From: Treponema sp. Marseille-Q3903
GTDB taxonomy: Bacteria > Spirochaetota > Spirochaetia > Treponematales > Treponemataceae
Assembly (NCBI RefSeq): GCF_014334335.1
Contig: NZ_JACSEU010000001.1
Location: 1,922,001 to 1,986,000, forward strand
Length of the DNA: 64,000 bases
Direction of reading: 5' to 3'
In this document: positions 5,309 to 53,845 of the stretch, piece by piece
How the letters are laid out: every line of letters starts with the position of its first letter
How positions within the stretch are numbered: position 1 is the stretch's first letter
Program-made: the position numbers and the translations under genes
Notes under the pieces: generated by a model
Database searches by the model: none
The model's input: only the letters and a program-made list of their open reading frames with translations
What the model was told of the DNA's origin: nothing

Positions 5309-5927
5309 TGAGGCTTCCGTTAAAAAATGAGGAACCGGAAACAATTACATCGGCACCGGCATCTAAAACAGTTTTTAGGGTATCATTATTTATGCCGCCA
5401 TCTACAGAAATTAAATAATTGTAATTGTGTTCCGCTCTGATTTTTTTCAGTTCTGCCACCTTGTCTGCACAAGATTCAATAAATTTCTGTCCACCCCAGC
5501 CCGGATTTACAGTCATCACTAATATAATATCGGCATATTCAAGGATTTCCGACAGTGCAGATACGGAAGTTCCCGGACAAATTGAAACGCCTGCCTTTAA
5601 TCCTCGTTCGTGAATCATCTGAATAAGACGGTGAGAATGCGCAGTTGCTTCAATATGAAAAGTAATCCAATCTGCGCCGGCATCTGCAAATGAAACAATA
5701 TGATTTTCAGGTTTCTCGACCATAAGATGTACGTCAAAAGGAAGTTTTGTCAAGTTTCTAATTGAACGAACGACAGGCTGACCGTACGTGATTTCAGGTA
5801 CAAAATGGCCGTCCATCACATCGATGTGAACTACAGAACCGCCGTTGTTCTCTATTTGTTTGATTGCACTTTCAAGATTGCTAAAATCAGCAGATAAAAG
5901 TGACGGAGCTAAAACTGGAGTTTTCAT
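5298..5927 (-). CDS. rpe: Ribulose-phosphate 3-epimerase
   Basis: Interconverts ribulose-5-phosphate and xylulose-5-phosphate in the pentose phosphate pathway. 209 aa, a usual length. It has the canonical start LAPSLLSADF, the HIDVMDGHFVPEITYG metal site, HLMVEKPENHI, VMTVNPGWGGQKFI and SVDGGIN. I chose the ATG at 5927 rather than an upstream in-frame TTG (5951) because it matches the family start and because the promoter hexamer TAAAAT ends 8 bp before it. There is no Shine-Dalgarno, so the mRNA is predicted to be leaderless or nearly so. It is the first gene of a four-gene minus-strand string. Confidence 0.95.
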   Translation of the reverse strand: MKTPVLAPSLLSADFSNLESAIKQIENNGGSVVHIDVMDGHFVPEITYGQPVVRSIRNLTKLPFDVHLMVEKPENHIVSFADAGADWITFHIEATAHSHRLIQMIHERGLKAGVSICPGTSVSALSEILEYADIILVMTVNPGWGGQKFIESCADKVAELKKIRAEHNYNYLISVDGGINNDTLKTVLDAGADVIVSGSSFFNGSLKWN

Positions 5928-5935
5928 TTGTAAGT

Positions 5936-5964
5936 ATTTTAACAGAAACAAAGCGGATTTTCAA
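5936..5964 (-). promoter_or_regulatory. rpe promoter, predicted leaderless start
   Basis: Reading the minus strand: TTGAAA (5964-5959), 17-bp spacer, TAAAAT (5941-5936), then 8 nt to the rpe ATG at 5927. With initiation 7-9 nt after the -10 box the transcript would begin at or within 2 nt of the start codon. Confidence 0.7.
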
Positions 5965-5970
5965 GAAAAC

Positions 5971-5986
5971 AGACTGATATCAGTCT
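5971..5986. promoter_or_regulatory. 16-bp perfect palindrome upstream of rpe
   Basis: AGACTGATATCAGTCT is a perfect palindrome with 8-bp arms, 7 bp upstream of the rpe -35 hexamer. It could be a regulator binding site; no regulator can be named. Confidence 0.4.
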
Positions 5987-6098
5987 ACAATCTGGCACAT
6001 CACTTGTAGCTTATTCTAGTCCATATAATTCATACCTCCATTGCAAGAGACAAAATCGCTTACGGATTAGTTAAAAATACACAAAATAAAAAAAATAC

Positions 6099-6127
6099 TT
6101 GACAGATTCAAACGTTAGATGTATAAA
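6099..6127 (+). promoter_or_regulatory. Promoter P1 for TPR-greA operon
   Basis: TTGACA (6099-6104), 17-bp spacer, TATAAA (6122-6127): a near-consensus sigma-70 promoter. It would give a leader of about 75 nt before the ATG at 6209. Confidence 0.75.
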
Positions 6128-6164
6128 CTTTATCCCAAAATTTTTATTTTTGTATATTTTTTGA

Positions 6165-6192
6165 TTGACTAATAAACTCGTTTTTGTATAAA
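6165..6192 (+). promoter_or_regulatory. Promoter P2 for TPR-greA operon
   Basis: TTGACT (6165-6170), 16-bp spacer, TATAAA (6187-6192). It would start transcription near 6199, about 10 nt before the ATG at 6209, and lies downstream of P1 in tandem. Confidence 0.6.
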
Positions 6193-6208
6193 ATTGAATT
6201 CAGACCTT

Positions 6209-7141
6209 ATGGAGATTCAAACGAAAGACAGCTTAAAAGATGCTCTGAACTTTTTAAAGCAAGGGAATCCTTTTGAAGCACAGAGAATTATAAGTACCTT
6301 ATTTGAAACTGAACTGGAAAATAGGGAACTTATATACACTAATAAGTGCTGTATCTTTTGGATTGATTCCATTAAACGTCTGAGAGAAATTGAAGACTCT
6401 TACGAGCGCAGCGAAAATATTCTTTTGGAATGGAAAACTTTTCAGCATTACATTTCAAGGGAAAACAGCTGTTTTGAGCCGGCATTGATTGCGGTTCAGC
6501 AGGGATTTTTTACAAACGCTCTCGCCGAGTTCAACAAATTACTGGAAGAAAGAGACCCGCAACAGAAAGCAGAAATCTATCGAAAAGCGGGAATTTGTTA
6601 CAAAAAACTTGGAGATTTTGAGAACGCAAGGGTTTTTCTGACAGAAGCAAACAAAATCTGCCCGAATCTTGCTTCGGTTATTGCGGAACTTGCAGATTGC
6701 TATTCTCTTTGCGGAGATGACAAGATTGGGAAAGTCCTGTTCAGGGAAGCATTTTTTAATGACCCCGACAGCATTGATTTGGATTTTCTTGATTCGCAGC
6801 TCATAAAGTGCCTTATTGAGCGGACAGAAAAAAAAGGTTATTCGGGAAAAGAACTTCGATACTGGATTCCGATTTACGGCGTCCTCAGCGGAGTTTTCAA
6901 TATAAAACGAGAGTTGACTTCTCAGGAAGTCGCCAGACTAAAAAAAGACATTTTTGCATTGGAAAACGAGATAAATGACCCTTCGTGCAAGAGCGAAATT
7001 CTTGTTCCTCGTCTGCTAAATTGTTATTTCTGGCTTATGGATCATTATGACTTAGCAAACGAAAATCAGGCTAAGATTAGTGAAGTTTTAGTAAAGATTA
7101 AAATTTTGGATTCTTCCATATACGAAGCATATACAAAATAG
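6209..7141 (+). CDS. TPR protein upstream of greA
   Basis: 310 aa from the ATG at 6209. A TTG at 6194 extends the frame by five codons but overlaps the -10 box of promoter P2, so I reject it. No Shine-Dalgarno is visible. The protein has no signal peptide or membrane helix and is therefore cytoplasmic. Residues about 85-190 contain TPR-like pairs (FEPALIAVQQGFFTNALAEFNKLL, AEIYRKAGICYKKLGDFENARVFL). The remainder is unassigned helical sequence. It is followed after 51 bp by the GreA fusion gene, so a role with it in transcription is possible but unproven. Confidence 0.8.
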   Translation: MEIQTKDSLKDALNFLKQGNPFEAQRIISTLFETELENRELIYTNKCCIFWIDSIKRLREIEDSYERSENILLEWKTFQHYISRENSCFEPALIAVQQGFFTNALAEFNKLLEERDPQQKAEIYRKAGICYKKLGDFENARVFLTEANKICPNLASVIAELADCYSLCGDDKIGKVLFREAFFNDPDSIDLDFLDSQLIKCLIERTEKKGYSGKELRYWIPIYGVLSGVFNIKRELTSQEVARLKKDIFALENEINDPSCKSEILVPRLLNCYFWLMDHYDLANENQAKISEVLVKIKILDSSIYEAYTK

Positions 7142-7192
7142 AAAACTTTAATTCAAAATCAAAGGGAGTTTTCCAATTTTAAGGAGATTAAG

Positions 7193-9910: not shown

Positions 9911-9951
9911 AAATCTGATTTAAGATATTCCGGCAAAGCAAAAGGAATCAA

Positions 9952-10911: not shown

Positions 10912-10929
10912 AGATTTTAGAACAGTATT

Positions 10930-12911: not shown

Positions 12912-12969
12912 ATATTTCCTTATTCAGCGGCGACTCTAATAAAAGCGTCCCGCATTCCGCATCTCAAAA

Positions 12970-13596
12970 TCATGTCAAATTACAGAAATTTTCGATTATC
13001 TTCAATCCTGTTTGCCCGGATTTTTCCGGATGGAATTGACATGCGAATATATTGTCTTTTTGAATTACCGCTGGAACTTTTATTCCATATTCTGTGTACG
13101 CTTTTACAACGGATTTACAAGTCGGGCAAATGACGTATGAGTGGACAAAATAAACATCGGAATTGTTTTGAACACCTTTTAAAATCTGACAATCGCCATT
13201 TTCAAAAGTAATATTATTCCAGCCAATCTGCGGAACTTTGATTTTTTGTTCTTTCATTCCCGGCTCTATCGAATAAAAATGTCTGATATTTCCTTCAACA
13301 AGTCCAAGACAAGCCGCATTTCCTTCTTCTGTTTTTTCAAATATTATCTGAGAACCGACGCATATCCCAAGCAATTTTTTCCCATCTGCCACTTGCTTTT
13401 TTACAAAATCATCAAATCCACTCGCTTTGAGCTGGTTCATCGCGTAAGAATCGTCTCCATCTCCTGGGAAAATAAATTTGTCGCAATCTTTTAACTCTTC
13501 TGGATTTTTTGAGCTAATATATTTAATTTTAAGATAATCAAGAGAGCGTTCAAGGCTTGTGATATTTCCAGCATTAAAATCAATAATTCCAGTCAT
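12970..13596 (-). CDS. hisH: Imidazole glycerol phosphate synthase glutaminase subunit
   Basis: 208-aa class I glutamine amidotransferase. The nucleophile is Cys79 in LLGICVGSQ, with the catalytic His-x-Glu in CQFHPEKSG near residue 188. VPQIGWN and YFVHSYV match the family. Several positions differ from common HisH (IDFNAGN instead of IDYGxGN, PGDGDDS instead of PGVGAF, GICVGSQ instead of GICLGMQ), which hints at the divergent HisH2 group. No Shine-Dalgarno is present: TATAAT ends 6 nt before the ATG, so it is predicted to be leaderless. Confidence 0.9.
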   Translation of the reverse strand: MTGIIDFNAGNITSLERSLDYLKIKYISSKNPEELKDCDKFIFPGDGDDSYAMNQLKASGFDDFVKKQVADGKKLLGICVGSQIIFEKTEEGNAACLGLVEGNIRHFYSIEPGMKEQKIKVPQIGWNNITFENGDCQILKGVQNNSDVYFVHSYVICPTCKSVVKAYTEYGIKVPAVIQKDNIFACQFHPEKSGQTGLKIIENFCNLT

Positions 13597-13602
13597 AAAC
13601 TG

Positions 13603-13631
13603 ATTATAGAAGAAATTGGTGTGATTCGCAA
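13603..13631 (-). promoter_or_regulatory. hisH promoter, predicted leaderless start
   Basis: Minus strand: TTGCGA (13631-13626), 17-bp spacer, TATAAT (13608-13603), six bases, then the hisH ATG (13596). Initiation 7 nt after the -10 box falls on the A of the ATG. Confidence 0.8.
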
Positions 13632-15702: not shown

Positions 15703-15731
15703 TTCACTTAAATCAAGATAAACGTTATAAT
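15703..15731 (+). promoter_or_regulatory. murE promoter, predicted leaderless start
   Basis: TTCACT (15703-15708), 17-bp spacer, perfect TATAAT (15726-15731), then six bases to the ATG at 15738. The expected start point is the A of the ATG. Confidence 0.75.
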
Positions 15732-15737
15732 CTGGCT

Positions 15738-17501
15738 ATGACTAAGTTGCTTTCTCAATTGCTTCCGGCTTTTAAAAATACAATCGTTGCAGTCGACGGT
15801 TCTGAAATTACAGACCTTTCTGAAATAAACGACATTCCGATTTCCAACCTTGTTTTTGATTCTCGTGAAGTTTCAAAAAATTCTCTTTTTTTTGCACTTC
15901 CGGGCACGCATACTGACGGAAACCTTTTTATAGAGCAGGCGATTCTTGCAGGTGCAAATGCTGTTGTTTTTCAAGGGGAACTTTCTCCTTCTCAAAAAAA
16001 AGATGTTGCAACTGCGATAATAAAACGGACGATCGAAAACGGACTTTCAGATGAAAAGACAAAATTTGCTCCAGTTTTAATAAATGTCCCGGACTCACGT
16101 TTTGCAATGGCTCCGGTTTCAGCATGTTTTTATGACAATCCGTCTGAGCGCTTAATCGTAATCGGAGTTACTGGGACTGAAGGAAAATCTTCAACTGTGA
16201 GTTTTATCTGGCAATATCTTCGGGCATGCGGTTACAAAGCTGGATTTATATCGACTGTTGAATATTCTTTTGGCGACGATGCTCTTCCGAATCCTCAGCA
16301 TCAGACAACACCGGAGTCCCCTGTTATTCAACATCACTTAAATGAAATGCTCCAAAACGGATGCACTTACGCAGTGATTGAATCTTCTTCGCACGGGCTA
16401 TCTTCAAAATTAAACAGATGTGGAAACATTATCTTTGACTGCGGAGTTTTTATGAACGTTACGCTTGAGCACCTTGAGTTTCACAAAAACTTTGAAACTT
16501 ATCGCAGTGATAAGGCTAACCTTTTCAGAATGCTCGATAAACATAACCATATAAAGACAATTGCCGGCGAAAAGAAAAAAATCAACTCTATCGGCGTTGT
16601 AAATCTTGAAGACCCTTCCGCAAAATATTTTATTGAAGCTACGAAAAAAAATGTTTACGGTTTTACGACAGGTGGGAAAGCAGGAAAATCGGCTGCGGAA
16701 TCTGGAGCAAATGCAATTCCGCTCCCTGAAATCCCAAAAAATCTACGCTATATGAAAGGACGAAATATCGCCTCGGCAACGTATGGACTTACGTTCGACA
16801 TAGACGCAGACGGAACTTCGGCATTTTATCCTGAGAATTACGACGCAGTTATTCCGCGCGAGCACACTCATTTTTCAGTTCGCGCAAATCTTCCAGGAGC
16901 ATTTAATGCATACAACATCATGGCATCGATCATCGCTGTAAGCAGTGTTACAGAACTTCCGTTTGAAAAAATAGCTGAAAAAACCGGTGAACTGACGCCG
17001 ATTAAAGGGCGGATGACAGTTATTGACGAAGGTCAGCCGTTTGAGCTAATTGTAGATTACGCTCACACTCCTTCAAGCTTTGAAACAATATTTCCTCCGC
17101 TAAAAAAAAGATGCAGCGGGCGAATGTTTGCATTATTTGGGAGCGGTGGCGAACGAGACCTTACAAAAAGGCCTCTTCAAGGGCAGATTGCGGCGAAGTT
17201 TTGCGACGTTGTAGTCCTTGCAGATGAAGATCCGCGCGGAGAAGACCCTGTAGAACTTCTTAAGATGATCGCAGAAGGAGCTGAAAAAGAAGGAAAAGTT
17301 ATCGGCGAAAATCTTTTTATAATTCACGACAGGCAGCAGGCAATCCGCGAAACTTTCAAAATGGCAGGAAAAGGCGACATCGTTCTTTTGCTCGGAAAAT
17401 CACACGAAAACAGCATAATCTACAAAGACCATGTAATGCCATACGATGAGATTTCAGAAGCAAAAAAAGCGCTCAAGGAACTAGGGTGTTCGAGGAACTA
17501 G
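15738..17501 (+). CDS. murE: UDP-N-acetylmuramyl-tripeptide synthetase
   Basis: Adds the third amino acid to UDP-MurNAc-L-Ala-D-Glu in peptidoglycan synthesis, in the cytoplasm. 587 aa, longer than the usual 490-500 because of an insert of about 50 residues near 300-350. It has the N-terminal DSREVSKNSLFFALPGTHTDG, the ATP loop VTGTEGKSSTV, ESSSHGLSSKLNR, and DYAHTPSSFE. The substrate-selecting loop reads DEDPRGEDP, a variant of the DNPR motif of diaminopimelate ligases. Treponemes are known for ornithine at this position, so the substrate is uncertain. I chose the ATG at 15738 over 15693 because the TATAAT box ends 6 nt upstream. Confidence 0.93.
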   Translation: MTKLLSQLLPAFKNTIVAVDGSEITDLSEINDIPISNLVFDSREVSKNSLFFALPGTHTDGNLFIEQAILAGANAVVFQGELSPSQKKDVATAIIKRTIENGLSDEKTKFAPVLINVPDSRFAMAPVSACFYDNPSERLIVIGVTGTEGKSSTVSFIWQYLRACGYKAGFISTVEYSFGDDALPNPQHQTTPESPVIQHHLNEMLQNGCTYAVIESSSHGLSSKLNRCGNIIFDCGVFMNVTLEHLEFHKNFETYRSDKANLFRMLDKHNHIKTIAGEKKKINSIGVVNLEDPSAKYFIEATKKNVYGFTTGGKAGKSAAESGANAIPLPEIPKNLRYMKGRNIASATYGLTFDIDADGTSAFYPENYDAVIPREHTHFSVRANLPGAFNAYNIMASIIAVSSVTELPFEKIAEKTGELTPIKGRMTVIDEGQPFELIVDYAHTPSSFETIFPPLKKRCSGRMFALFGSGGERDLTKRPLQGQIAAKFCDVVVLADEDPRGEDPVELLKMIAEGAEKEGKVIGENLFIIHDRQQAIRETFKMAGKGDIVLLLGKSHENSIIYKDHVMPYDEISEAKKALKELGCSRN

Positions 17502-23141: not shown

Positions 23142-24944
23142 TTAATCTTCTTTTTCTTTTAAAACCGCAAGGAACGCACTCTGAGGCAACTCAACATCGC
23201 CGATCATCTTCATTCGCTTCTTTCCTTCCTTTTGCTTTTCAAGAAGTTTTCGTTTACGAGTTATATCACCGCCGTAACATTTTGCAAGGACGTCTTTTCG
23301 GACAGGGCTTACAGTTTCGCGGGCAATAACCTGACTTCCTATAGCACCTTGAATTGCAATCTTAAACTGCTGGCGTGAAATTTCATCTTTCAGGCGTTCA
23401 CAGACTTTGCGAGCACGGTCTACCGCATTTTGACGGAACGTCAGCAGAGAAAGAGCATCTACCATCTTTCCGTTTAACAAAATATCGACTTTTACGAGCT
23501 CTGTCGGTCTGTAACCTATGACTTCGTAGTCAAATGACGCATATCCTCGGCTGTAGCTTTTAAGTCTGTCGTAAAAATCAAAAAGAACTTCAGCGAGCGG
23601 CATTTCATAAGTGATTTCAACGCGCTTTGTATCAAGATACTGCATATTTGTCTGCAAGCCCCGTTTTTCCGTGCAAAGCGCCATAATTGAACCAAGATAT
23701 TCGGCAGGAGTTATTATAGATGCTTTGATGTAAGGCTCCTCTGCCTCTTTGATTCTTCCCTGAGGGTATTCGGACGGATTATCGATGAACATATCTTCTC
23801 CGCTAGTGAGATGCAGAAGATATCTTACAGATGGCGCTGTGAAAATTACAGCTTGATCATAATCGCGTTCAAGGCGTTCTTGAATAATTTCAAGATGAAG
23901 AAGTCCTAAAAATCCGCATCGAAAACCGTTTCCAAGCGCAAGCGAATTATCTTTTTCATAAATGAGGCTCGCATCGTTCAGCTTTAATTTTTCCATGCTG
24001 TCTTTAAGCTCTTCATAATCGTTTGAATCCATCGGATAAATTGACGAATAAACGACAGGTTTAACTTCTTTAAATCCCGGAAGCGCAGTCTCTATTCCAT
24101 TTTGAACTGTTGTGATAGTGTCTCCAACCCGAACATCGCTTACAGTTTTCAGTCCCGAGATTATATAACCGACGTCGCCAGCTTCAAGCACTCCAGTCTC
24201 TTCGTAGTTGATTTTAAAAATACCGCACTGCTCTACTTTGTAATGTGTATCGGAACTCATCATCTTGATGAGGTCTCCTGTCTTCAATTTTCCTTCCATG
24301 ACGCGGACGTGAACAACGACGCCACGATAAACATCGTAATGGCAATCAAAAATCAAAGCTGCAAGTTTTCCGTCAGGATTACCTTTTGGCGAAGGAAATT
24401 TTGTCACAATAGCTTCAAGGAGTTCATCGATGCCCTGACCAGTTTTTGCAGACACAAGCTGAGTATCTGAAGGGTCGAGCCCGAGCTCATTTTCAATCTG
24501 ATTTTGACATGAAGCAACATCTGCAGACGCAAGGTCAATTTTGTTGATTACAGGAACAATTGTAAGGTCATGCTCAAGAGCCATGTACATATTTGAGACG
24601 GTTTGGCTTTCAACCCCCTGTGTTGCATCGATTAAAAGCAGCGCACCTTCACAAGACGCAATTGCCCGTGAAACTTCGTAAGAAAAGTCTACGTGACCGG
24701 GCGTGTCTACAAAGTTCAATTCATAGTCGTGTCCGTCTTTAGCGTGATAAGGGATTGTGACTGCCTGACTTTTTATTGTGATACCGCGTTCGCGTTCAAT
24801 ATCCATATTATCGAGAATCTGGTTCACCATTTTACGGTCATCGATTATCTGTGCTTTTTGAATGAGTCTGTCTGACAAAGTCGATTTGCCGTGGTCAATG
24901 TGAGCAACGATACAAAAATTGCGTTTATATTTCATTTCAGCCAT
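23142..24944 (-). CDS. lepA: Elongation factor 4 (LepA), ribosome back-translocase GTPase
   Basis: 600 aa, full length. G-domain motifs AHIDHGKSTLSD (G1), GITIKSQ (G2), DTPGHVDF (G3), NKIDLA (G4) and SAKTGQ (G5) are intact. The LepA-specific C-terminal domain is recognisable (YGGDITRKRKLLEKQKEGKKRMK near the end). It binds stalled ribosomes and affects translocation under stress. AGGGGA precedes the ATG. It follows the HtrA-like protease gene after 33 bp. Confidence 0.98.
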   Translation of the reverse strand: MAEMKYKRNFCIVAHIDHGKSTLSDRLIQKAQIIDDRKMVNQILDNMDIERERGITIKSQAVTIPYHAKDGHDYELNFVDTPGHVDFSYEVSRAIASCEGALLLIDATQGVESQTVSNMYMALEHDLTIVPVINKIDLASADVASCQNQIENELGLDPSDTQLVSAKTGQGIDELLEAIVTKFPSPKGNPDGKLAALIFDCHYDVYRGVVVHVRVMEGKLKTGDLIKMMSSDTHYKVEQCGIFKINYEETGVLEAGDVGYIISGLKTVSDVRVGDTITTVQNGIETALPGFKEVKPVVYSSIYPMDSNDYEELKDSMEKLKLNDASLIYEKDNSLALGNGFRCGFLGLLHLEIIQERLERDYDQAVIFTAPSVRYLLHLTSGEDMFIDNPSEYPQGRIKEAEEPYIKASIITPAEYLGSIMALCTEKRGLQTNMQYLDTKRVEITYEMPLAEVLFDFYDRLKSYSRGYASFDYEVIGYRPTELVKVDILLNGKMVDALSLLTFRQNAVDRARKVCERLKDEISRQQFKIAIQGAIGSQVIARETVSPVRKDVLAKCYGGDITRKRKLLEKQKEGKKRMKMIGDVELPQSAFLAVLKEKED

Positions 24945-24977
24945 AGCTTTCCCCTGAAAAGTTATTTGTAATTTAAT

Positions 24978-31082: not shown

Positions 31083-31942
31083 GTCTTAACAAGTTTACAA
31101 TTCCAAGCACATGCAAGCAAACTACTTACAGCTTCAGCTTGTTGTCTTTCAGTAAACGCTCCAAAAACAGTCGAACCCGAACCTGACATTTCGGCATAAC
31201 AACATCCGGCTTTCTTTAGCTCGTTGATTGCTCGTCCAATCTCCTCATAATGAACTGCAACTACTGGAGTAAAGGTATTCGCTAATGTCCATTCTTTTAG
31301 CGGCTTATGGTAAACGAACTCAAATTCATCTAAATCAGGGGCATCAGATTTTTTTTCGACTTTGAACTCTTTATCTACAAGCTCGTAGGCAACTTTCGTA
31401 GAAGAGCTGACTTTCGGAAAAATCAGAAGTAAAAACAAATCATGTCGTGGTATAATATTATGTACAATTTCTCCGCGGCCTGAAACTAAAGCACAGCCTT
31501 TTCCTTCTTCATCACAATGCATAAAAAAGAAAACATCGCTGCCTATTTTTGATGAAATAAGATCAAGTTTCTCCTCATTTAACTTGATTTTATTTAATTT
31601 TTCGAGAACCTTGATTAAAGCTGCGGCATCCGAAGATCCGCCGCCTAACCCGCCGCCAGAAGGAATCCGTTTTTTAAGAAATACATTGACACCAATTGAA
31701 TTCTTTCCGGTCACATCACAGAATGCGTTATAAGCACTTACCAAAGTATTGTTTTCGGGCAACCGCATTGAATCGCAGTGAACCTCACAGACCATTTTGG
31801 GAACAGGAGTCACAATCAACTCGTCAAATAAATCGATTGTCTGAAATATACTCTCTATGTTGTGAAATCCGTCAGCTCGCTTTTGCAAAACTTTTAAGCC
31901 AAAATTTATTTTAGCGTAAGCTTTCACCGTAATTTCACGCAT
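31076..31942 (-). CDS. ispE: 4-diphosphocytidyl-2-C-methyl-D-erythritol kinase
   Basis: GHMP kinase of the MEP isoprenoid pathway, phosphorylating CDP-ME. 288 aa. N-terminal AYAKINFGLKVLQKRADGFHNIESIFQTI, the ATP loop PSGGGLGGGSSDAAA (94-107), and C-terminal MSGSGSTVFGAF. The start ATG has no Shine-Dalgarno. A strong promoter (TTGACA-18-TACAAT) ends 8 nt before it, so the transcript should be leaderless or have at most a few bases of leader. Confidence 0.95.
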   Translation of the reverse strand: MREITVKAYAKINFGLKVLQKRADGFHNIESIFQTIDLFDELIVTPVPKMVCEVHCDSMRLPENNTLVSAYNAFCDVTGKNSIGVNVFLKKRIPSGGGLGGGSSDAAALIKVLEKLNKIKLNEEKLDLISSKIGSDVFFFMHCDEEGKGCALVSGRGEIVHNIIPRHDLFLLLIFPKVSSSTKVAYELVDKEFKVEKKSDAPDLDEFEFVYHKPLKEWTLANTFTPVVAVHYEEIGRAINELKKAGCCYAEMSGSGSTVFGAFTERQQAEAVSSLLACAWNCKLVKTV

Positions 31943-31950
31943 ACACTTAC

Positions 31951-31980
31951 ATTGTATAACGTTTTTAACTTATATGTCAA
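31951..31980 (-). promoter_or_regulatory. ispE promoter, predicted leaderless start
   Basis: Minus strand: TTGACA (31980-31975), 18-bp spacer, TACAAT (31956-31951), then 8 nt to the ATG at 31942. Highest-scoring promoter by eye in this region. Confidence 0.8.
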
Positions 31981-33464: not shown

Positions 33465-33468
33465 TTTA

Positions 33469-43698: not shown

Positions 43699-44505
43699 TC
43701 AAGACATCATTACAGTTTTGATTTCTGCGAGCATATCTAAAATTCTTGAAGTGATTTCAAACGATTGCGGCATAAGGCTTTCAAAATCATCTTTCATTGT
43801 GTGAAATAGTTGCCAAGTGTATGGCATGTTCCCCTTTAAGGCATCTGATATTTCTGAAGATGGGAGCATTGTTATTGCGACAGCCGGAATCCCATTTGCA
43901 ATAAAGCTTGCGTTATCCGAATAGTTGCACGGCAATGAAAACCACTTTCCATGCCCTGCAGATTGAATCAGATTTGCGGCGCGTTCTTCAAGAGCAGCAA
44001 AATCTTTTTTAAATTTTTGTGATGCGCCGTGCGGTAAAACTGTTTGAGTGAGGACAGGAACATCGCCTCGCCCCATGCAGTCAAAAACATAGATATCGTT
44101 ATCTGTAATCCCAAGCTTTCTGAACAATGTTGCAAGCGGGAATGCTCCCTGCCTGCAAACTCCATCTTTTCCAAGCTCTTCGCCATCAGTAAAAATCAGC
44201 CTGATATTGTGGAATTCTTTCATTTTAACAAGGCGTTCGCACCATTCAAGCATGCACCAAACAGCAGCGGAATTGTCGTTTGCGCCGGGAGAGTTTTCAA
44301 CGCGGTCGTAATGAGCTATGACAGTCTTAATTCTGAACTCGGGATTGTAATATCTAAGCGGAAACTTCACATATATGTGATTTTTTTCATTCATCCGAAT
44401 CACAGGTGCGTCAATGCCGGACTTATTTAAATACGATTGGATAAAAGAAGCTCTATCGCATTCAAGTTCTATAAATTTTTTAAATTCAAAAGGAATCTGA
44501 TACAT
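43699..44505 (-). CDS. M28-family zinc peptidase-like protein
   Basis: 268 aa without a signal peptide. Metal-binding motifs are AHYDRVENSPGANDNSAAVW (His and Asp), FTDGEELGKDG (Glu-Glu) and IPAVAITMLP. Typical aminopeptidase fold, substrate unknown. The promoter with TGATATAAT ends six bases before the ATG and there is no Shine-Dalgarno: leaderless. Divergent from glyA. Confidence 0.85.
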   Translation of the reverse strand: MYQIPFEFKKFIELECDRASFIQSYLNKSGIDAPVIRMNEKNHIYVKFPLRYYNPEFRIKTVIAHYDRVENSPGANDNSAAVWCMLEWCERLVKMKEFHNIRLIFTDGEELGKDGVCRQGAFPLATLFRKLGITDNDIYVFDCMGRGDVPVLTQTVLPHGASQKFKKDFAALEERAANLIQSAGHGKWFSLPCNYSDNASFIANGIPAVAITMLPSSEISDALKGNMPYTWQLFHTMKDDFESLMPQSFEITSRILDMLAEIKTVMMS

Positions 44506-44511
44506 GGTTGT

Positions 44512-44520
44512 ATTATATCA
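44512..44520 (-). promoter_or_regulatory. M28 gene promoter (extended -10), predicted leaderless start
   Basis: Minus strand TGATATAAT (44520-44512), an extended -10 (TGnTATAAT), then ACAACC and the ATG at 44505. No clear -35, as usual for extended -10 promoters. Confidence 0.75.
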
Positions 44521-46105: not shown

Positions 46106-46110
46106 CAAGA

Positions 46111-46790: not shown

Positions 46791-46816
46791 AAAATTTAAA
46801 TCCAATGAAAATTAAA
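46785..46816. repeat. 16-bp tandem duplication at thioesterase stop / CYTH start
   Basis: tcccataaaatttaaa (46785-46800) and tccaatgaaaattaaa (46801-46816), 13 of 16 identical. On the minus strand copy one holds the thioesterase stop TAA and copy two holds the CYTH ATG. Confidence 0.75.
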
Positions 46817-47222: not shown

Positions 47223-47240
47223 TTTATTCTCCAATAAAAC

Positions 47241-49076
47241 TCAATATTTACTTACAAGCGAAATATTTCCACATACAATTCCATATTTATCGTAGACATA
47301 ATCGTTGAGCGCAACAGCCGCATCTTCAAAACCTCTCCCTTTTGTTTCTCGAACATAGGCGGCAAGTTCCGGAGTGTATTTCATGACAGAACCACGGTTT
47401 GCGCAGTGAACAAAATATGAAGCGACATCTGAAAGTTTTTGCTGCATTATATATGCCATAAACTCGTTTTGCAACAGATAATCATCATTTATATCATAGC
47501 CAAGCTGAGGCTGCGATTTAAAATAATCAATTAAAAATGCACGTGAGAGCGGATCAAAAGTGTAAAAAACAGCAGATACAAAGTTGCGGAAATCTGCATC
47601 GCGGAAGAAAATTGTGTGCCAGCCTTCGTGTGCAAGGAGTTTTTGTCGATTCCATTCAGGCGTTTCCTGCGAAATTGAAACGACGCCTCCTTCATTTGCA
47701 CGGACAAAATCTCCATCAGATTCTAAAAGACCATTCGCAATCAAAATCTTTTTTAAAAGCAGCTCCTCTTTGTTTAAAACAAACCCCGTCTTATTCGCTT
47801 TGTTAAAAAAATCAGCCATAGAGACAGCGCTGTAATCATGAGCGTTGTAACCGTGCAAGTCCGCAAGCTCTTCATTTGTCAAAAGCCGACCTTTGTATCC
47901 TTGTTTTTCCACAAAATACGCCATTCGCCTAAAAAAATTGTTTTGCACATTGTAATTGCGTGTGTCAAAAAACAAAATGTTTGAAAATCTGTCCCATTCA
48001 AATATTTCATAGTCGAGCGTACGCCAGCCTGAACGTTTGTAATTCAATATTAAACCGGGTTCTGTTCTTATCGGGATGAGGACTTCGCTTCCGCTTCTGT
48101 TTGTGCTATGCATCATGACAGAAGAAACACATTCAGCATTGTTCACGATTTCCAGGCGAGAAAAAGGAGCTTTCATAGAATCACAAGGTACGATAATTTC
48201 ATCTGCTGGAACAACGTTGTTGATAAAAAGTTTTTCACCTCCAAGGTTGATTTCAGCGCGGACAGATTTTTCTTTGCTCGATTTATTTTCAGGATTATCC
48301 GAAAGTTTGATTGCAAATTCGGGCATTGTCATTTTCGTATTATTGACAACAGGGAAAATCATTGAACCGCCGGAAAAATCAAAACTCTTATTTTCAAAAT
48401 CTATGATTCCGCCGTTGTACGCAAATCCGTAGAACGGAATTGATGAAGCAATGTCAAAACCGAGTTTTGCAGGCATGATACAAGCTGCAACAATTTTACA
48501 CTTTACGGACGAATAAATAAAAAAACCTTCCGGTAAAACTTTTCTTATATCATCGTTTTTTTGAACTGCAAAAGAAACGTCAAAAACTTCCGGCGACTTT
48601 TTCAAATCGCCCTGCACAAGAATTCGGTGAGATGGTTGATAAACGCGGCGAATAAATTTTCCTTTGGAATTAAAATCTTGATCGCTCAAAAATCCGTATC
48701 TAAAATAAAGATTTTCATCGCCGCTAAGAATTTTCTTTTGCAAGTGCGAACGATTTACCTGAAACCTGATTGTAATTGCAAGCGTGCCGTTTTCCTCGCA
48801 AAAAAAAGCCATGCGCTCTCTCTGACTTTCCGTAAATTTGAAGTTTGCATAGTCGCCGCTTTTTATAATTCCGCTGCGGGCACTTTTATCTAAAGAAAAA
48901 AGACTGTCTTTTACATCGCTCCCGAAACATTCGAGTTTTACACCTGATTTATGTCTTGTCGCAATTAGAAATATTCCAAGCAATAAATCTGTAAAAATAA
49001 AACAGGCAATGAGTGCAGCGATTTTTTTCTGCTGTTTTGAAAATGTTTGAAATTTTGGTAATTTAAACGAAAGCAT
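47241..49076 (-). CDS. Membrane-anchored putative zinc metallopeptidase (HEXXH)
   Basis: 611 aa. An N-terminal membrane helix (about 20-40, IAALIACFIFTDLLLGIFLI) is followed by about 430 residues of beta-rich sequence. HEGWH at 483-487 (LLAHEGWHTIFF) is an HExxH zinc motif, and NEFMAY (537-542) supplies a plausible third ligand Glu538, the arrangement of gluzincin-type peptidases. No family can be named. The start has no Shine-Dalgarno; an extended -10 box ends 6 nt upstream. Confidence 0.75.
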   Translation of the reverse strand: MLSFKLPKFQTFSKQQKKIAALIACFIFTDLLLGIFLIATRHKSGVKLECFGSDVKDSLFSLDKSARSGIIKSGDYANFKFTESQRERMAFFCEENGTLAITIRFQVNRSHLQKKILSGDENLYFRYGFLSDQDFNSKGKFIRRVYQPSHRILVQGDLKKSPEVFDVSFAVQKNDDIRKVLPEGFFIYSSVKCKIVAACIMPAKLGFDIASSIPFYGFAYNGGIIDFENKSFDFSGGSMIFPVVNNTKMTMPEFAIKLSDNPENKSSKEKSVRAEINLGGEKLFINNVVPADEIIVPCDSMKAPFSRLEIVNNAECVSSVMMHSTNRSGSEVLIPIRTEPGLILNYKRSGWRTLDYEIFEWDRFSNILFFDTRNYNVQNNFFRRMAYFVEKQGYKGRLLTNEELADLHGYNAHDYSAVSMADFFNKANKTGFVLNKEELLLKKILIANGLLESDGDFVRANEGGVVSISQETPEWNRQKLLAHEGWHTIFFRDADFRNFVSAVFYTFDPLSRAFLIDYFKSQPQLGYDINDDYLLQNEFMAYIMQQKLSDVASYFVHCANRGSVMKYTPELAAYVRETKGRGFEDAAVALNDYVYDKYGIVCGNISLVSKY

Positions 49077-49082
49077 TCTTAA

Positions 49083-49091
49083 ACTATATCA
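49083..49091 (-). promoter_or_regulatory. Leaderless promoter of the HEXXH gene
   Basis: Minus strand TGATATAGT (49091-49083), then TTAAGA and the ATG at 49076. Extended -10 type. Confidence 0.65.
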
Positions 49092-49107
49092 AAAAATCAA
49101 AAAAGTT

Positions 49108-49113
49108 TATACT
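49108..49113 (+). promoter_or_regulatory. -10 box of the 174-aa gene
   Basis: TATACT, then eight bases to the ATG at 49122. No convincing -35. With the divergent gene it gives two predicted leaderless starts in a 45-bp gap. Confidence 0.45.
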
Positions 49114-49121
49114 ATACCGAA

Positions 49122-49646
49122 ATGACTGTTATTGTTTTACATCAGGCAGATGAGCTGAAATTGATTGATTTTCAAAAAAAACTCATAGAAAATACAAAAG
49201 GCGGATGGTATGCCCATATACCACTTTGGATTGAACTCCCTGATATTTTTTGTGCAAAAAATAAAGATGATTTAAAAAAACTCTCAAAACAGATTTCAAA
49301 AGTCGAAGTCGGAAGAGTATGCCATTCAGATGAAACCTCTGACTTGATTTATGCGAATATCACAATTTTTGATAAAAATGATAATGCGTTTTTTGCAAGG
49401 CTGCCACTTTTGCACCGCCTGAGCGAAAATTCTCGATGCGAAAAAGATTTTCCCGCCACAAAAGAAAACGATTTTGCCTGCCCGCTCTCAAAAATAAAAA
49501 TATTCAGGCTTGGAATAGAAAAAGAGACAGATGTCTCGGAAAAAAGCAGACATTTGAATTCTCAGAATATCTTAAACGTACAGTTGAGAGCTTTGACAGA
49601 CTCAATCTGGGTCAAATTACATGACAGCGCTTCCTCGGTCGAGTGA
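49122..49646 (+). CDS. Hypothetical protein, 174 aa
   Basis: No recognised domain, signal peptide or membrane helix. The N-terminal half (VLHQADELKLIDFQKKLIENTKGGWYAHIPLWIELP) looks like a folded alpha/beta domain; later there are conserved-looking charged patches. The 3' end overlaps the ilvN 3' end by 30 bp on the opposite strand. The codon usage looks like its neighbours, and the -10 box and ATG support a real gene. Confidence 0.6.
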   Translation: MTVIVLHQADELKLIDFQKKLIENTKGGWYAHIPLWIELPDIFCAKNKDDLKKLSKQISKVEVGRVCHSDETSDLIYANITIFDKNDNAFFARLPLLHRLSENSRCEKDFPATKENDFACPLSKIKIFRLGIEKETDVSEKSRHLNSQNILNVQLRALTDSIWVKLHDSASSVE

Positions 49647-50105: not shown

Positions 50106-50114
50106 ATTTTCTCT

Positions 50115-52616
50115 CTATTTTTCAGGGTTGAAAGACACTGTTCTTAAAATATCTCCGAACACGCCGGCCGCCGTCACGCCTGCCCCTGCCCCATATCCGC
50201 GAACAGTTAGAGGAATCGGCTGATAACGTTCTGTATAGAACACAAATGCGTTTTCACCGCCTCGAACACCGTAAAGCGGATCATCAGAGCTGACATCCAT
50301 CATCCCGACAGAAACATTTCCATCTTTTATAGAAGCACCCATTCGGAGAACTTTTCCATTTTTCTTCAAACTCGCAATTTTTTTCGCAAAATAATCATCG
50401 ACTTCAGGAAGTTTTTTAAGGAATTCTTCAACTGTTCCTGAAGAATCGAACGATTCAGGGAATACTTTATACATCGTGATGTCGGAAAGTTCTATATCGA
50501 AACCTGATTCGCGTGCGATGATAAGAGCTTTCCGTGCAACATCCATTCCGCTTAAATCATCACGTGGGTCAGGCTCTGTGTAACGCAATTCTTTTGCTTC
50601 GAGAACAGCTTTGCTAAAAGGAATACCTTCATCGAGCCTACCGAATATATATGAAAGCGAGCCCGACATAATTCCGGTAAAGCTCTCAAGCCTATCTCCT
50701 GATTTATAGAGGTTTTGCAGAGTATCGATTATAGGGAGTCCGGCGCCAACATTTGTCTCGTACAAGAAACGGCGGTGCATCTTGTTGGCAGCTCTGCGCA
50801 ATTCGTGGTAAAAATCGATTCCCATTGAGTTTGCGCGCTTATTAGGAGTTGCAATGCTCATTCCCGCGTTGATGATGTCTAAGTAACGTTCAGGCAAATC
50901 ATAAGACGCAGTGCAGTCCACAAATACAGGATTGAGAGGCTTTTTATCTTTTACAAATTTTATTATGTCGTCAACATTCTGCGGCCCAAACTGAAAATCA
51001 GTTTTTTTCATCTGTTCACGCCAATTAGAAAGGTCTATTCCATCTTCTTTCAAAAGCATACCGTCGATAGTTGTGATCGCAAGAACTTTGATATCGACAT
51101 TTTCTTTAAGAAGCTTGTCATGCTGTTGATAAATCTGGTCGATCATCGTACCGCCGATTGTTCCGGCTCCAAAAGCGAACACTTGAATTGTCTGAGCTGT
51201 GTGGAAGAAAAACTGATGAGCTGCGAGAACGGCAGTGTCGGCAAACTCGCTGCAAATTACAGTTGAAATACAACGTTCTGAACTGCCTTGAGCTATTGCG
51301 AGGATATTTATATCCTGACTTGAAAGCGCATTGAAAAATTTAGAAGCGACGCCTCTGTTTGCAATCATCCCGTCTCCAACAACAGAGACAATCGCACAGT
51401 CGTTGCGTACATCAATTTCATCGATCAGTTTTTCACGTATTTCAAGTTCGAATTTTGCTGCAAGAGCATCACGAACTTTTTCTGCCTCATCATCGCGGAC
51501 GCAAAAAGAAATTGTATATTCGGAAGACGATTGAGTTATCAAAAGAACCGAAACACCTGCTCCCGATACGGCAGAGAAAATCTTGCTTGCCATACCTGAG
51601 CGTCCACGCATCAGAGAGCCGCCAACACTCACCATTGCGATGTGCTTTAATGAAGAAATCCCACATATACTTGATTTTCTGTGGCTTTCAAACGGGCCTT
51701 TTCCGATTCTAGTCCCGCGTGCATTTGGATTGTGGCTGTTCAAACTCCACGCCTCAATTCCCTTAGCTTGAAGCGGCGCAATAGTTTTAGGATGAAGAAC
51801 TTTAGAACCGAAAAATGAAAGTTCCATCGCTTCTTCATAAGTCATATCGTCGACGAGAATTGCATCTTTTACAATACGAGGGTCTGCTGTATAAACACCA
51901 TCTACATCTGTCCAGAATTCAACGCGTTTAACACGAAGGCTCGCACCGATAATTGCGGCAGAAAAATCAGAACCATTGCGACCAAGCAAACCTGCAACAG
52001 GTTTAGAACCGGAGCCGCCTTGCCATGTACATATAAATCCCGGAAATAAAAGGATTCGAGTTTGATCGGGGCTAGCTCCGTCTCGGAAAGGTGCGCAAGC
52101 CTCGTTGCAAAGCGCATAATCGGCTTCACCTTCTTTTTGGTTCCCGGTTGTAAACACAAATTTACGGCTGTCTAACAAAATCACACTTTGTTTTTTAGCG
52201 AGCAAAACGGCTTCCATGATAGGAGCAGAGAGAAGCTCTCCCATGCCCATTATACGGCAGTGGACAGTATCAGGGCACTCGCCAAAGCTCACACAGCCTG
52301 CGAGCAGTTTTTCAAGTTCAACAAAATTAGATTCAATCTTAGACATTGTCTTTTCTGCATCAAAACCCGAAAGTTTTGAATGAAGTTCCAGACATATTTC
52401 ATTGTGGATATTTCTTATTTCAGTTACATAATTGGCTCCGGTAATTCCCGATGTCGTTGCATCAATCGCAGATTGCAGCGTGTTAGAAACGCCGGCAACA
52501 GCACTTACAATAACACTAATACGATCTTCTTTTGCACGATTGATTATAATTTCGGAAGAAGCCAAGATACGGCGAGCGTTTGCCATTGAAGTGCCGCCAA
52601 ATTTGAGAGCAATCAT
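50115..52616 (-). CDS. thrA: Bifunctional aspartokinase / homoserine dehydrogenase
   Basis: 833 aa from the ATG at 52616, with AAGGTGGT upstream. Aspartokinase with KFGGTSMANA (4-13), GRNGSDFSAAIIGASL and FWTDVDGVYTADPRIV; two ACT domains near residues 310-450; then homoserine dehydrogenase from about 475 (VFAFGAGTIGGTM, NKRANSM, GAGLPIIDTL, GYGAGAGVTAAGVFGD). It catalyses the first and third steps of threonine/methionine/isoleucine synthesis from aspartate. Promoter and a short coupled ORF lie upstream. Confidence 0.96.
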   Translation of the reverse strand: MIALKFGGTSMANARRILASSEIIINRAKEDRISVIVSAVAGVSNTLQSAIDATTSGITGANYVTEIRNIHNEICLELHSKLSGFDAEKTMSKIESNFVELEKLLAGCVSFGECPDTVHCRIMGMGELLSAPIMEAVLLAKKQSVILLDSRKFVFTTGNQKEGEADYALCNEACAPFRDGASPDQTRILLFPGFICTWQGGSGSKPVAGLLGRNGSDFSAAIIGASLRVKRVEFWTDVDGVYTADPRIVKDAILVDDMTYEEAMELSFFGSKVLHPKTIAPLQAKGIEAWSLNSHNPNARGTRIGKGPFESHRKSSICGISSLKHIAMVSVGGSLMRGRSGMASKIFSAVSGAGVSVLLITQSSSEYTISFCVRDDEAEKVRDALAAKFELEIREKLIDEIDVRNDCAIVSVVGDGMIANRGVASKFFNALSSQDINILAIAQGSSERCISTVICSEFADTAVLAAHQFFFHTAQTIQVFAFGAGTIGGTMIDQIYQQHDKLLKENVDIKVLAITTIDGMLLKEDGIDLSNWREQMKKTDFQFGPQNVDDIIKFVKDKKPLNPVFVDCTASYDLPERYLDIINAGMSIATPNKRANSMGIDFYHELRRAANKMHRRFLYETNVGAGLPIIDTLQNLYKSGDRLESFTGIMSGSLSYIFGRLDEGIPFSKAVLEAKELRYTEPDPRDDLSGMDVARKALIIARESGFDIELSDITMYKVFPESFDSSGTVEEFLKKLPEVDDYFAKKIASLKKNGKVLRMGASIKDGNVSVGMMDVSSDDPLYGVRGGENAFVFYTERYQPIPLTVRGYGAGAGVTAAGVFGDILRTVSFNPEK

Positions 52617-52721
52617 ATTACCACCTTGATTAAAGACCGCAATTTCCCCGAGTTTCCGAGCGAGCATCTACACAATTGGCAGAGTCGGAATTTAACCATA
52701 ACTAATAACTTTAATTCTGAC

Positions 52722-52750
52722 ATTTTAATTTAAAAGATTTTTTTAAGCAA
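52722..52750 (-). promoter_or_regulatory. thrA promoter
   Basis: Minus strand: TTGCTT (52750-52745), 17-bp spacer, TAAAAT (52727-52722). Start near 52715, leader about 100 nt before the thrA ATG. Confidence 0.6.
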
Positions 52751-52771
52751 GATTCCCAATTTTTGTGCCAA

Positions 52772-52848
52772 CAACTCGTGTGTGCAATATCAGCAACTCG
52801 TGTGTGCAATATCAACAACTCGTGTGTGCAAACAATTCGTGATATCAC
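52772..52848. repeat. 22-bp x3 tandem repeat between exonuclease and thrA
   Basis: Unit starting CAACTCGTGTGTGCAATATC at 52772, 52794 and 52816 (period 22), followed by a degenerate fragment from 52833. Lies 45-120 bp past the exonuclease stop. Copies are nearly identical. No spacer structure, so not a CRISPR. Confidence 0.9.
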
Positions 52849-52892
52849 GACTAGAAAACTCGCTAAAAATTATCAAAAAAAATAAAAATATT

Positions 52893-53810
52893 TTATTTTA
52901 ATATTGTGTTGATTTCGTCGACAGTTTTACATTCAAGACCGCGTCCCAAAACTTTCTTTAACAATTCTGGATGAGGCTTGTCGCGAAAAATTACAGTCCC
53001 TTTACCGTTCAACCGCTCCCCAAGTATTCCGCCGTTGTCATATATTTTTTTTGCTAGTTCAAACGCAACATCCACATCATGCATAAGCTTATGTTCAAAC
53101 TCAAACTTCTGATTGTCGACAGTTTTATACTTTGGCATCGGAGATTTTTTATTATACAGACGCTTTATTTTCTCAGTGATTTCCTTGCGGTATTCCCGTT
53201 CTTGAGCTTGTTCGAGAATCTGTTCATTAGATACAAAAAGAGCTTTATTTTCTTCCAATATCTCTTCGACTGTCTTCCCTGATTTTGCACATTCGGCCTT
53301 AAGGCAAAGCATAGTCATAATTGCGTCATCTTCAGACTTGTGGCTATGATATTTTGCAACATTTACACAAAATTCTTCCGCCCACTCGACAAGTTTTTGC
53401 TTTTTTTGATATTTTTTTTCAAGGTATTTTTCGATATCAAAAGCACGAAACTGAATATAAGGAAGCTGATAGCGTTCGCACGCATTGTTTACAAAGCCGA
53501 CATCGTTAGATACTGCAAAACCGACGATGTAACGATTTCCCGTAGTCAAAAGTTTTTTGATATTTTTATAGTAAGATTCAAAATTAGGCTTAGCTCTAAA
53601 ATAATCTTTTGAATATGCAAGTTGACATCCACCTTTTTTGCTAAAAAGATACCAGTCAAAATCGCACTCAGGATTTATTACAACATCTTCATGCTCAATT
53701 ATATTAAGCTCATCGTCGGCAATTACGTAACCGAACGAACACATCTTTCCAATTCCGTCAAAAGTGTTTGCGCATTCACAGTCAAAAAAAACAAAAGATT
53801 TATGAATCAT
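52893..53810 (-). CDS. DnaQ-like 3'-5' exonuclease
   Basis: 305 aa. Exo I motif FFDCECAN (D-x-E) near the N-terminus, an Exo II-like aspartate in VGFAVSNDVGFVNNACE, and Exo III HKSEDDAIMT (H-4x-D), the DEDDh arrangement. The C-terminal 120 residues are lysine-rich and unassigned. Could trim DNA or RNA ends; substrate unknown. No Shine-Dalgarno: TAAAAT ends six bases before the ATG. Confidence 0.85.
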   Translation of the reverse strand: MIHKSFVFFDCECANTFDGIGKMCSFGYVIADDELNIIEHEDVVINPECDFDWYLFSKKGGCQLAYSKDYFRAKPNFESYYKNIKKLLTTGNRYIVGFAVSNDVGFVNNACERYQLPYIQFRAFDIEKYLEKKYQKKQKLVEWAEEFCVNVAKYHSHKSEDDAIMTMLCLKAECAKSGKTVEEILEENKALFVSNEQILEQAQEREYRKEITEKIKRLYNKKSPMPKYKTVDNQKFEFEHKLMHDVDVAFELAKKIYDNGGILGERLNGKGTVIFRDKPHPELLKKVLGRGLECKTVDEINTILK

Positions 53811-53816
53811 AATGTG

Positions 53817-53845
53817 ATTTTACAGTTTAATTTAGTTTTGTTCAA
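53817..53845 (-). promoter_or_regulatory. Exonuclease promoter, predicted leaderless start
   Basis: Minus strand: TTGAAC (53845-53840), 17-bp spacer, TAAAAT (53822-53817), CACATT, ATG at 53810. Confidence 0.75.

What the first reader, a model, noticed from the sequence alone, without database searches (positions are those of the whole stretch)
5925..53845. A class of predicted leaderless mRNAs: -10 box ends 6-8 nt before the ATG, with no Shine-Dalgarno
Reading each operon-leading start, a repeated architecture appears. A good -10 hexamer is followed by 6 nt (hisH, murE, M28 peptidase, HEXXH protein, exonuclease) or 8 nt (rpe, ispE, 174-aa gene) and then ATG. Several have a proper -35 at 17-18 bp: rpe TTGAAA-17-TAAAAT, hisH TTGCGA-17-TATAAT, ispE TTGACA-18-TACAAT, exonuclease TTGAAC-17-TAAAAT, murE TTCACT-17-TATAAT. 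None of these starts has a Shine-Dalgarno, whereas recA, rplY, spoVG, lepA, ddl, glyA, thrA, the lipoproteins and others do. All the leaderless candidates use ATG. Weaker cases are recX, recQ and the 81-aa protein (13667). The consistency suggests a regular second mode of translation initiation in this lineage, not chance. I do not recall it being described for Treponema.
Basis: partly seen in the sequence, partly recalled or inferred. Interest (0 to 1): 0.75.

Follow-up and report, generated by a model that had tools for sequence, protein, structure and literature searches.

The report
Leaderless mRNAs in a gut Treponema
About one in seven operon-leading genes of this rumen-type Treponema appears to start its mRNA at, or a base or two before, the AUG, so the ribosome must begin without a leader or Shine-Dalgarno sequence; the trait is known in other bacteria, and here statistics and conservation point to it in treponemes and other spirochaetes.

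Summary
Confirmed. All eight main window cases (rpe, hisH, murE, ispE, M28, HEXXH, exonuclease, 174-aa gene) have a -10 box of at least 5/6 ending 6 or 8 nt before an ATG, without Shine-Dalgarno (SD). In 464 kb (18%) of the genome, with starts called without upstream signals, 38 of 142 SD-less operon leaders carry such a box at 6-9 nt (shuffles 5.1 +/- 2.1), against 1 of 75 SD leaders and 3 of 93 operon-internal genes. A -35 box appears independently at 17 bp. The signal recurs in a second species of the genus, another genus of the family and, more weakly, two order-level genomes; not in E. coli. rpe, murE and, less strictly, hisH and ispE orthologues keep it. lepA is mostly SD-led inside an operon in the window's genus, while 9 of 11 order-level relatives, where it seems to lead, have the leaderless box. 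A 43-45 bp divergent pair with two such boxes occurs in four species. Best reading: sigma70 leaderless mRNAs, roughly 15% of operon leaders. No 5' ends were mapped. Leaderless genes are known in bacteria, including Spirochaetes (Zheng 2011) and Leptospira (2017); my searches found nothing specific to Treponema. A well-supported new member of a known kind.

The parts
5925..5964 (-). rpe (ribulose-phosphate 3-epimerase) leaderless promoter: -35 5959-5964 TTGAAA, 17 bp, -10 5936-5941 TAAAAT, 8 nt, ATG 5925-5927
   Evidence: box at 6-9 nt in 26 of 30 orthologues, own included, at >=5/6
13594..13631 (-). hisH leaderless promoter: -35 13626-13631 TTGCGA, 17 bp, -10 13603-13608 TATAAT, 6 nt, ATG 13594-13596
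   Evidence: 11 of 21 orthologues at >=5/6, 17 of 21 at >=4/6
15703..15740 (+). murE-type Mur ligase leaderless promoter: -35 15703-15708 TTCACT, 17 bp, -10 15726-15731 TATAAT, 6 nt, ATG 15738-15740
   Evidence: 18 of 25 orthologues at >=5/6
31940..31980 (-). ispE leaderless promoter: -35 31975-31980 TTGACA, 18 bp, -10 31951-31956 TACAAT, 8 nt, ATG 31940-31942
   Evidence: 11 of 29 orthologues at >=5/6, 21 of 29 at >=4/6, 0 of 29 with SD
44503..44517 (-). M28 peptidase: TGn-extended -10 44512-44517 TATAAT, 6 nt, ATG 44503-44505
   Evidence: 8 of 20 orthologues at >=5/6, 14 of 20 at >=4/6, SD in 3
49074..49088 (-). HEXXH protein (611 aa): TGn-extended -10 49083-49088 TATAGT, 6 nt, ATG 49074-49076
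   Evidence: divergent arrangement seen in three other species
49108..49124 (+). 174-aa gene: -10 49108-49113 TATACT, 8 nt, ATG 49122-49124; shares the 45-bp intergenic 49077-49121 with the HEXXH gene
53808..53845 (-). RNase_T-type exonuclease leaderless promoter: -35 53840-53845 TTGAAC, 17 bp, -10 53817-53822 TAAAAT, 6 nt, ATG 53808-53810
   Evidence: 5 of 14 orthologues at >=5/6, SD in 3
24942..24955 (-). lepA start with GGGGA Shine-Dalgarno (contrast case: follows another gene by 33 nt here; leaderless-type in most order-level relatives)

Best explanation
These are leaderless transcription units. A housekeeping sigma70 promoter lies so close to the gene that RNA polymerase, starting about 7 nt downstream of the -10 box (established knowledge), begins the mRNA at the A of the AUG or a base or two before it. 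Translation then starts at a 5'-terminal AUG without SD pairing, as described for other bacteria (70S route; not tested here). The same cell keeps a normal anti-SD tail and uses SD for operon-internal genes and many other leaders. Shown: box position, spacing, linked -35, near restriction to SD-less leaders, conservation in orthologues, SD and leaderless forms of lepA in different relatives. Inferred: the exact 5' end and the ribosomal step. About 15% of operon leaders (about 9% of called genes) in the sampled 18% of the genome.
For: Peak at 6-9 nt, 38 of 142 SD-less leaders against 1 of 75 SD leaders (Fisher p=4e-7) and 3 of 93 internal genes (p=9e-7); shuffles 5.1 +/- 2.1. Independent -35: mean match to TTGACA 2.92 of 6 at spacer 17, 1.4-1.9 at the other spacers from 8 to 29; spacer 17 is also the maximum of 14-20 in G001, G033, G036 and G062 (2.88, 3.00, 3.00, 4.17). 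EM started with flat spacing finds the 6-9 nt peak, not in E. coli. Same class in G001 17 of 85 and G062 12 of 86 SD-less leaders, against 0 of 75 and 0 of 98 SD leaders, and in 24 of the 80 loci (treponeme/spirochaete titles) 19 of 103 against 1 of 36. Orthologues keep the box: rpe 26 of 30 (7 of 7 order-level), murE 18 of 25 at >=5/6. lepA: SD in 13 of 18 same-genus genomes, 0 of 11 order-level genomes; box (>=4/6) in 9 of those 11. 1 of 39 box-bearing genes has an SD-preceded alternative start within 25 codons, against 19 of 104 other SD-less leaders (p=0.014). Anti-SD tail pattern GGATCACCTCCTTT present 3 times.
Against: No 5' end was mapped and no protein start was tested. G036 is weak (8 of 98, p=0.079 against SD leaders); in G033 the difference from internal genes is p=0.056. 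16 of 39 boxes in the own sample have no -35 of 4/6 at 16-18, and 13 have neither that nor TGn. M28 and exonuclease orthologues keep the box less well (8 of 20, 5 of 14). lepA does not follow operon position strictly: in G005 and G026 the box lies 12-15 nt behind the upstream gene. T before the ATG (29 of 39) does not differ clearly from SD leaders (p=0.10) and is not seen in G001 (7 of 17) or G036 (1 of 9). In the 24 loci there is a second peak at 13-14 nt (11 genes), which is one orthologous gene beside rpe, apparently with a short leader and no SD. The one Treponema sigma70 start site I saw in print, T. [quoted passage not shown]
Confidence: 0.88

Rival explanations
1. The boxes are true promoters but RNA starts a few nt upstream of the AUG, giving very short leaders (2-5 nt) rather than strictly leaderless mRNAs.
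For: Boxes at 8 and 9 nt (8 and 5 of the SD-less leaders; 8 nt in rpe, ispE and the 174-aa gene) leave room for 1-3 extra nt. A gene beside rpe keeps its box at 13-14 nt without SD in 11 loci, so short leaders seem to exist.
Against: The peak is at 6 nt, where the A of AUG is the usual start position.
Confidence: 0.15
2. An AT-rich translation signal without SD (S1-type or Bacteroidota-like) that only resembles a -10 box.
For: AT-rich upstream biases of SD-less genes in other phyla have been linked to S1 as well as to leaderless mRNAs (PMC5397173, passages).
Against: A translation signal would also serve operon-internal genes, but 3 of 93 have it, and it would not come with TTGACA at exactly 17 bp.
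Confidence: 0.03
3. The promoters are real but the start codons are wrong: translation starts further downstream with an SD, so the mRNAs are leadered.
For: 19 of 104 other SD-less leaders have an SD-preceded in-frame start within 25 codons, so some called starts are wrong.
Against: 1 of 39 box-bearing genes has one, none with ATG, and 17 have no alternative start within 25 codons; most rpe and murE orthologues start at the ATG that aligns with the window's (shift 0 in 25 of 30 and 22 of 25).
Confidence: 0.03
4. Chance in AT-rich intergenic DNA, or the reader choosing starts to fit.
Against: Starts called without upstream signal agree for rpe, hisH, murE, ispE, M28, HEXXH, recX and exonuclease (the 174-aa gene was not called); shuffles, SD leaders and E. 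coli show no peak.
Confidence: 0.01

Closest known systems
TA-led (leaderless) bacterial genes of Zheng et al. 2011 (PMC3160421; abstract, sections 7 and 9 and passages read)
   Same: TA-type signal about 10 bp upstream of the start, no SD, exchange of SD and TA signals between orthologues, link to operon position; 6 of 18 Spirochaetes genomes reported with 1.8-6.9% leaderless genes.
   Different: Treponema not found in the main text (supplement not seen); the share here (about 9% of sampled genes, another method) is slightly above their Spirochaetes range; here a linked -35 is shown and single genes are followed across families.
Leaderless mRNAs of Leptospira interrogans by dRNA-seq (PMC5243855; passages read)
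   Same: Same phylum; about 440 mRNAs with 5'UTR under 10 nt, half of them under 2 nt.
   Different: There 5' ends were measured but no common motif other than RpoN was found; here clear -35/-10 motifs but no 5' ends.
Leaderless transcriptome of Mycobacterium tuberculosis (PMC3898074, PMC4633059; search listing only)
   Same: Leaderless and SD-led genes in one cell.
   Different: High-GC Actinomycetota; 505 leaderless mRNAs as quoted in PMC5243855.
Bidirectional bacterial promoters (PMC10268837, PMC12825309; start of abstract in search listing only)
   Same: Back-to-back promoter elements driving divergent transcription.
   Different: Here both divergent genes seem to begin directly at the box (45-bp and 23-bp intergenic regions).

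Membership tests
Bacterial leaderless (TA-led) genes | -10-like signal about 10 bp upstream of the start codon, in excess of background | tested here: met
   38 of 142 SD-less leaders, shuffles 5.1 +/- 2.1
Bacterial leaderless (TA-led) genes | No Shine-Dalgarno | tested here: met
   38 of 39 box-bearing leaders without GGAG/GAGG/AGGA at -20..-4
Bacterial leaderless (TA-led) genes | Operon-proximal position | tested here: met
   3 of 93 internal genes carry the box, near the shuffle mean of 1.9; lepA broadly follows operon position, with G005 and G026 as exceptions
Bacterial leaderless (TA-led) genes | AUG start codon | tested here: inconclusive
   38 of 39 ATG against 160 of 178 in other leaders, p=0.21; the caller's prior favours ATG
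Bacterial leaderless (TA-led) genes | mRNA 5' end at or within about 2 nt of the AUG | not testable with these tools
   needs RNA
Bacterial leaderless (TA-led) genes | Ribosomes start on the 5'-terminal AUG | not testable with these tools
   needs translation assays
sigma70 promoter | TTGACA-like -35 at 17 +/- 1 bp from the -10 | tested here: met
   mean match 2.92 at spacer 17 against 1.4-1.9 elsewhere; maximum at 17 in all five genomes; 23 of 39 with >=4/6 at 16-18
Bacteroidota-type initiation without SD | Altered promoter (TAnnTTTG near -7, recalled) and general loss of SD | tested here: not met
   -10/-35 are sigma70-like; 75 of 217 leaders and 54 of 93 internal genes have SD; anti-SD tail present

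The most novel reading that the evidence does not exclude
Leaderless initiation is an old, gene-specific trait of the class Spirochaetia: rpe has kept the leaderless box across the order (7 of 7 order-level genomes examined), lepA has it in 8 of 16 further families sampled in the class, and a gene tends to swap it for an SD when it is drawn into an operon (lepA in the window's genus). It also permits divergent gene pairs to share 23-45 bp with two back-to-back promoters and no leaders, one such pair being kept in four species.
Probability: 0.6. Interest if true: 0.55.

Novelty: new member of a known kind. Interest (0 to 1): 0.42.

Why it matters
It adds treponemes, a group with hard-to-grow species (general knowledge), to the bacteria that run two start modes side by side, and names genes and bases to test. 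Gene finders that assume SD may misplace such starts. lepA, leaderless-type in many spirochaete families but mostly SD-led inside an operon in the window's genus, is a natural experiment on how a gene changes its start mode. Leaderless mRNAs are reported to escape some initiation inhibitors (stated in PMC3160421, and PMC9581028).

Tried and rejected
Considered and rejected: chance (shuffles), a translation-only AT signal (linked -35, few internal genes), wrong starts. Tried with little gain: T before the ATG is enriched against other SD-less leaders in the own genome (29 of 39 against 36 of 104, p=3e-5) but not clearly against SD leaders (p=0.10), and not in G001 or G036. Box-bearing leaders more often have a divergent neighbour (19 of 39 against 55 of 178, p=0.04, uncorrected). 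AT-rich controls: Pelagibacteraceae 3 of 58 and Clostridium/Geosporobacter loci 1 of 16 SD-less leaders show no peak, but the samples are small, and the Pelagibacteraceae internal count (13 of 44) is inflated because the loci are homologous. In the EM fit the promoter share ran to 1.00 in five of six sets, so its absolute shares are not used; by its flat-spacing measure internal genes also reach 8% in G000 and 12% in E. coli. First prints of orthologue upstreams were unoriented and were redone. The 81-aa ORF and recQ were dropped from the leaderless list.

Dropped before counts: in the own sample 50 of 360 genes (no upstream neighbour or 70 nt in the stretch, or same-strand gap of 25-49 nt). 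The exonuclease (gap 47) and the 174-aa gene (not called by the codon model) are therefore not among the 39. Orthologue counts (own genome included): rpe 30 of 30 fetched loci, from 39 genomes with a match; murE 25 of 30; ispE 29 of 30; hisH 21 of 30; lepA 29 of 30 (same-genus G002 and G009 and order-level G013 left out); M28 20 of 20; exonuclease 14 of 16. Class-level lepA: 20 of 66 genomes with a match.
Full report
What was checked. The window lies at G000:C1:1922001-1986000 of a 2.51-Mb, 4-contig genome. Relatives with titled records, found through rpe, are mainly rumen/gut Treponema and spirochaete bins, with T. bryantii B25 at 75% and T. parvum at 65% identity in rpe (records of the same or a very near genome may be left out there). 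Five also have a -35 of at least 4/6 at 17-18 bp (for the exonuclease TTGAAC at 17, read directly). M28 and the HEXXH protein instead have a TGn extension, which rpe has as well. recX is a good ninth case. recQ and the 81-aa ORF fail.

Beyond chance. To avoid choosing starts by their promoters, I called genes from codon usage only in the window plus 20 stretches of 20 kb (464 kb, 18% of the genome; 360 genes). Among 217 operon leaders (divergent neighbour or gap of 50 nt or more), 142 lack an SD. In these, -10-like hexamers lie at 6, 7, 8, 9 nt in 14, 11, 8, 5 cases, against about 1.6 per distance at the other distances from 0 to 49; at 6-9 nt SD leaders have 1 of 75 and operon-internal genes 3 of 93. 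Dinucleotide shuffles of the SD-less leaders give 5.14 +/- 2.14, maximum 12 in 300. Fisher p is 4e-7 against SD leaders and 9e-7 against internal genes. The excess is about 33 genes: some 15% of the 217 leaders, some 9% of the 360 called genes.

Why it is a promoter. The boxes were chosen by the -10 alone, yet TTGACA-like hexamers stand out upstream only at spacer 17 (mean match 2.92 of 6; 17 of 39 with at least 4/6), the other spacers from 8 to 29 giving 1.4-1.9. Spacer 17 is the maximum of 14-20 in all five treponeme-order genomes; in G062, another genus of the same family, the mean is 4.17 against 0.9-1.8 at the other six. An EM fit started with a flat spacing finds the 6-9 nt peak in G000 and G001 with a TTGAAA/TATAAT pair, in weaker forms in G033 and G036, and in 24 of the 80 loci; not in E. 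coli. In those 24 loci it also finds a peak at 13-14 nt; the 11 genes behind it are one orthologous gene of 309-312 aa beside rpe, apparently with a short leader and no SD. The 16S tail pattern is normal (3 places), so SD pairing should be intact.

Relatives. The same blind count at 6-9 nt gives G001 (same genus) 17 of 85 SD-less leaders against 0 of 75 SD leaders; G062 (same family) 12 of 86 against 0 of 98; G033 (same order) 11 of 85 against 0 of 77, but 4 of 96 internal genes (p=0.056); G036 (same order, 51% GC) 8 of 98 against 1 of 76 (p=0.079), weak. E. coli K-12, five stretches of 50 kb: 0 of 64 and 0 of 57. For orthologues, own genome included and with the start set by protein alignment, the box at 6-9 nt (>=5/6; in brackets >=4/6) is present in rpe 26 (27) of 30, murE 18 (19) of 25, ispE 11 (21) of 29, hisH 11 (17) of 21, M28 8 (14) of 20, exonuclease 5 (7) of 14. 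Some ispE misses are boxes at 5, 10 or 11 nt.

lepA as a natural experiment. In all 18 same-genus genomes examined (of 20 searched) a homologue of the window's upstream gene lies on the same strand, 9-111 nt before lepA; 13 of 18 have an SD by the tetramer rule, two more (the window's own and G010) a GGGGA, and three (G005, G007, G026) a >=5/6 box at 6-9 nt. In G005 and G026 that box lies only 12-15 nt behind the upstream gene, so the coupling to operon position is not strict. In all 11 order-level genomes examined (of 12) no such homologue was found within the 1.5 kb held; 9 of 11 have the box (>=4/6), none an SD. In G062 lepA reads TTGACA-17-TATAAT-7-ATG. Of 20 class-level genomes from 16 families, 10 (8 families) have a >=5/6 box at 6-9 nt, one of them also scored SD by an AGGA next to the box; 5 of 20 score SD in all, and G057 has an unscored GGGGAGG before a TTG start. 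So the start mode seems to go with operon position. Zheng et al. 2011 proposed this coupling for genomes as a whole (PMC3160421, section 9).

Divergent pairs. The HEXXH and 174-aa genes stand back to back over 45 bp with a -10 box on each strand. Of 25 genomes searched, five match the 174-aa protein. Besides the own genome, G010, G003 and G023 keep both genes divergent over 45, 44 and 43 bp, each 174-aa orthologue with a >=5/6 box at 6-9 nt; a TATAGT 6-8 nt before the HEXXH-homologue ATG can be read on the other strand (the latter my reading of the printed sequence). The fifth, G006, lacks the arrangement in the locus held. HEXXH homologues are 49-59% and 174-aa homologues 31-35% identical. 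In G062 two called genes are 23 bp apart with overlapping -10 boxes (L330 10949/10973).

What stays open. No RNA was available. 104 of the 142 SD-less leaders have no box at 6-9 nt; 19 of these have an SD-preceded downstream start and are probably mis-called, the rest are unexplained. Literature: searches for leaderless with Treponema, spirochete, Borrelia and Spirochaetes, and for Treponema with transcription start sites, listed no report of leaderless mRNAs in Treponema in the held library; the two T. pallidum papers heading concern peptides or only cite a gene finder. Subscription papers and supplements were not searched. Known: Spirochaetes 6 of 18 genomes with leaderless genes (PMC3160421); Leptospira about 440 leaderless mRNAs (PMC5243855); leaderless transcription predicted in 21.6% of bacterial species (PMC9581028). 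Hence: a well-supported new member of a known kind.

Noticed in passing
window 49077-49121; L318, L319, L320: A 43-45 bp divergent intergenic region with two back-to-back -10 boxes between a HEXXH protein and a 174-aa protein, both without a Pfam match; kept in four species.
   Followed up: partly
L330 10949-10973 (G062): Two divergent called genes only 23 bp apart with overlapping -10 boxes, 6 and 7 nt before their ATGs.
   Followed up: no
L142, L143, L144, L145, L146, L147, L149, L150, L152, L154, L164 (gene of 309-312 aa beside rpe; window counterpart about 6209-7141): An orthologous gene keeps its -10 box at 13-14 nt before the ATG without SD, which would give a leader of about 6-7 nt: a possible short-leader class.
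   Followed up: partly
window 52667: The longest ORF of thrA (aspartate kinase/homoserine dehydrogenase) probably starts too far upstream: the best family matches begin at residues 17-22, where an ATG preceded by AAGGTGGT lies.
   Followed up: no
sample L002-L021 and window: 104 of 142 SD-less operon leaders have no -10 box at 6-9 nt either; about a fifth look like mis-called starts, the rest have neither signal.
   Followed up: partly
L009, L021, L002: 20-kb stretches of the own genome at 30-32% GC against 35-41% in the others sampled, perhaps acquired islands.
   Followed up: no
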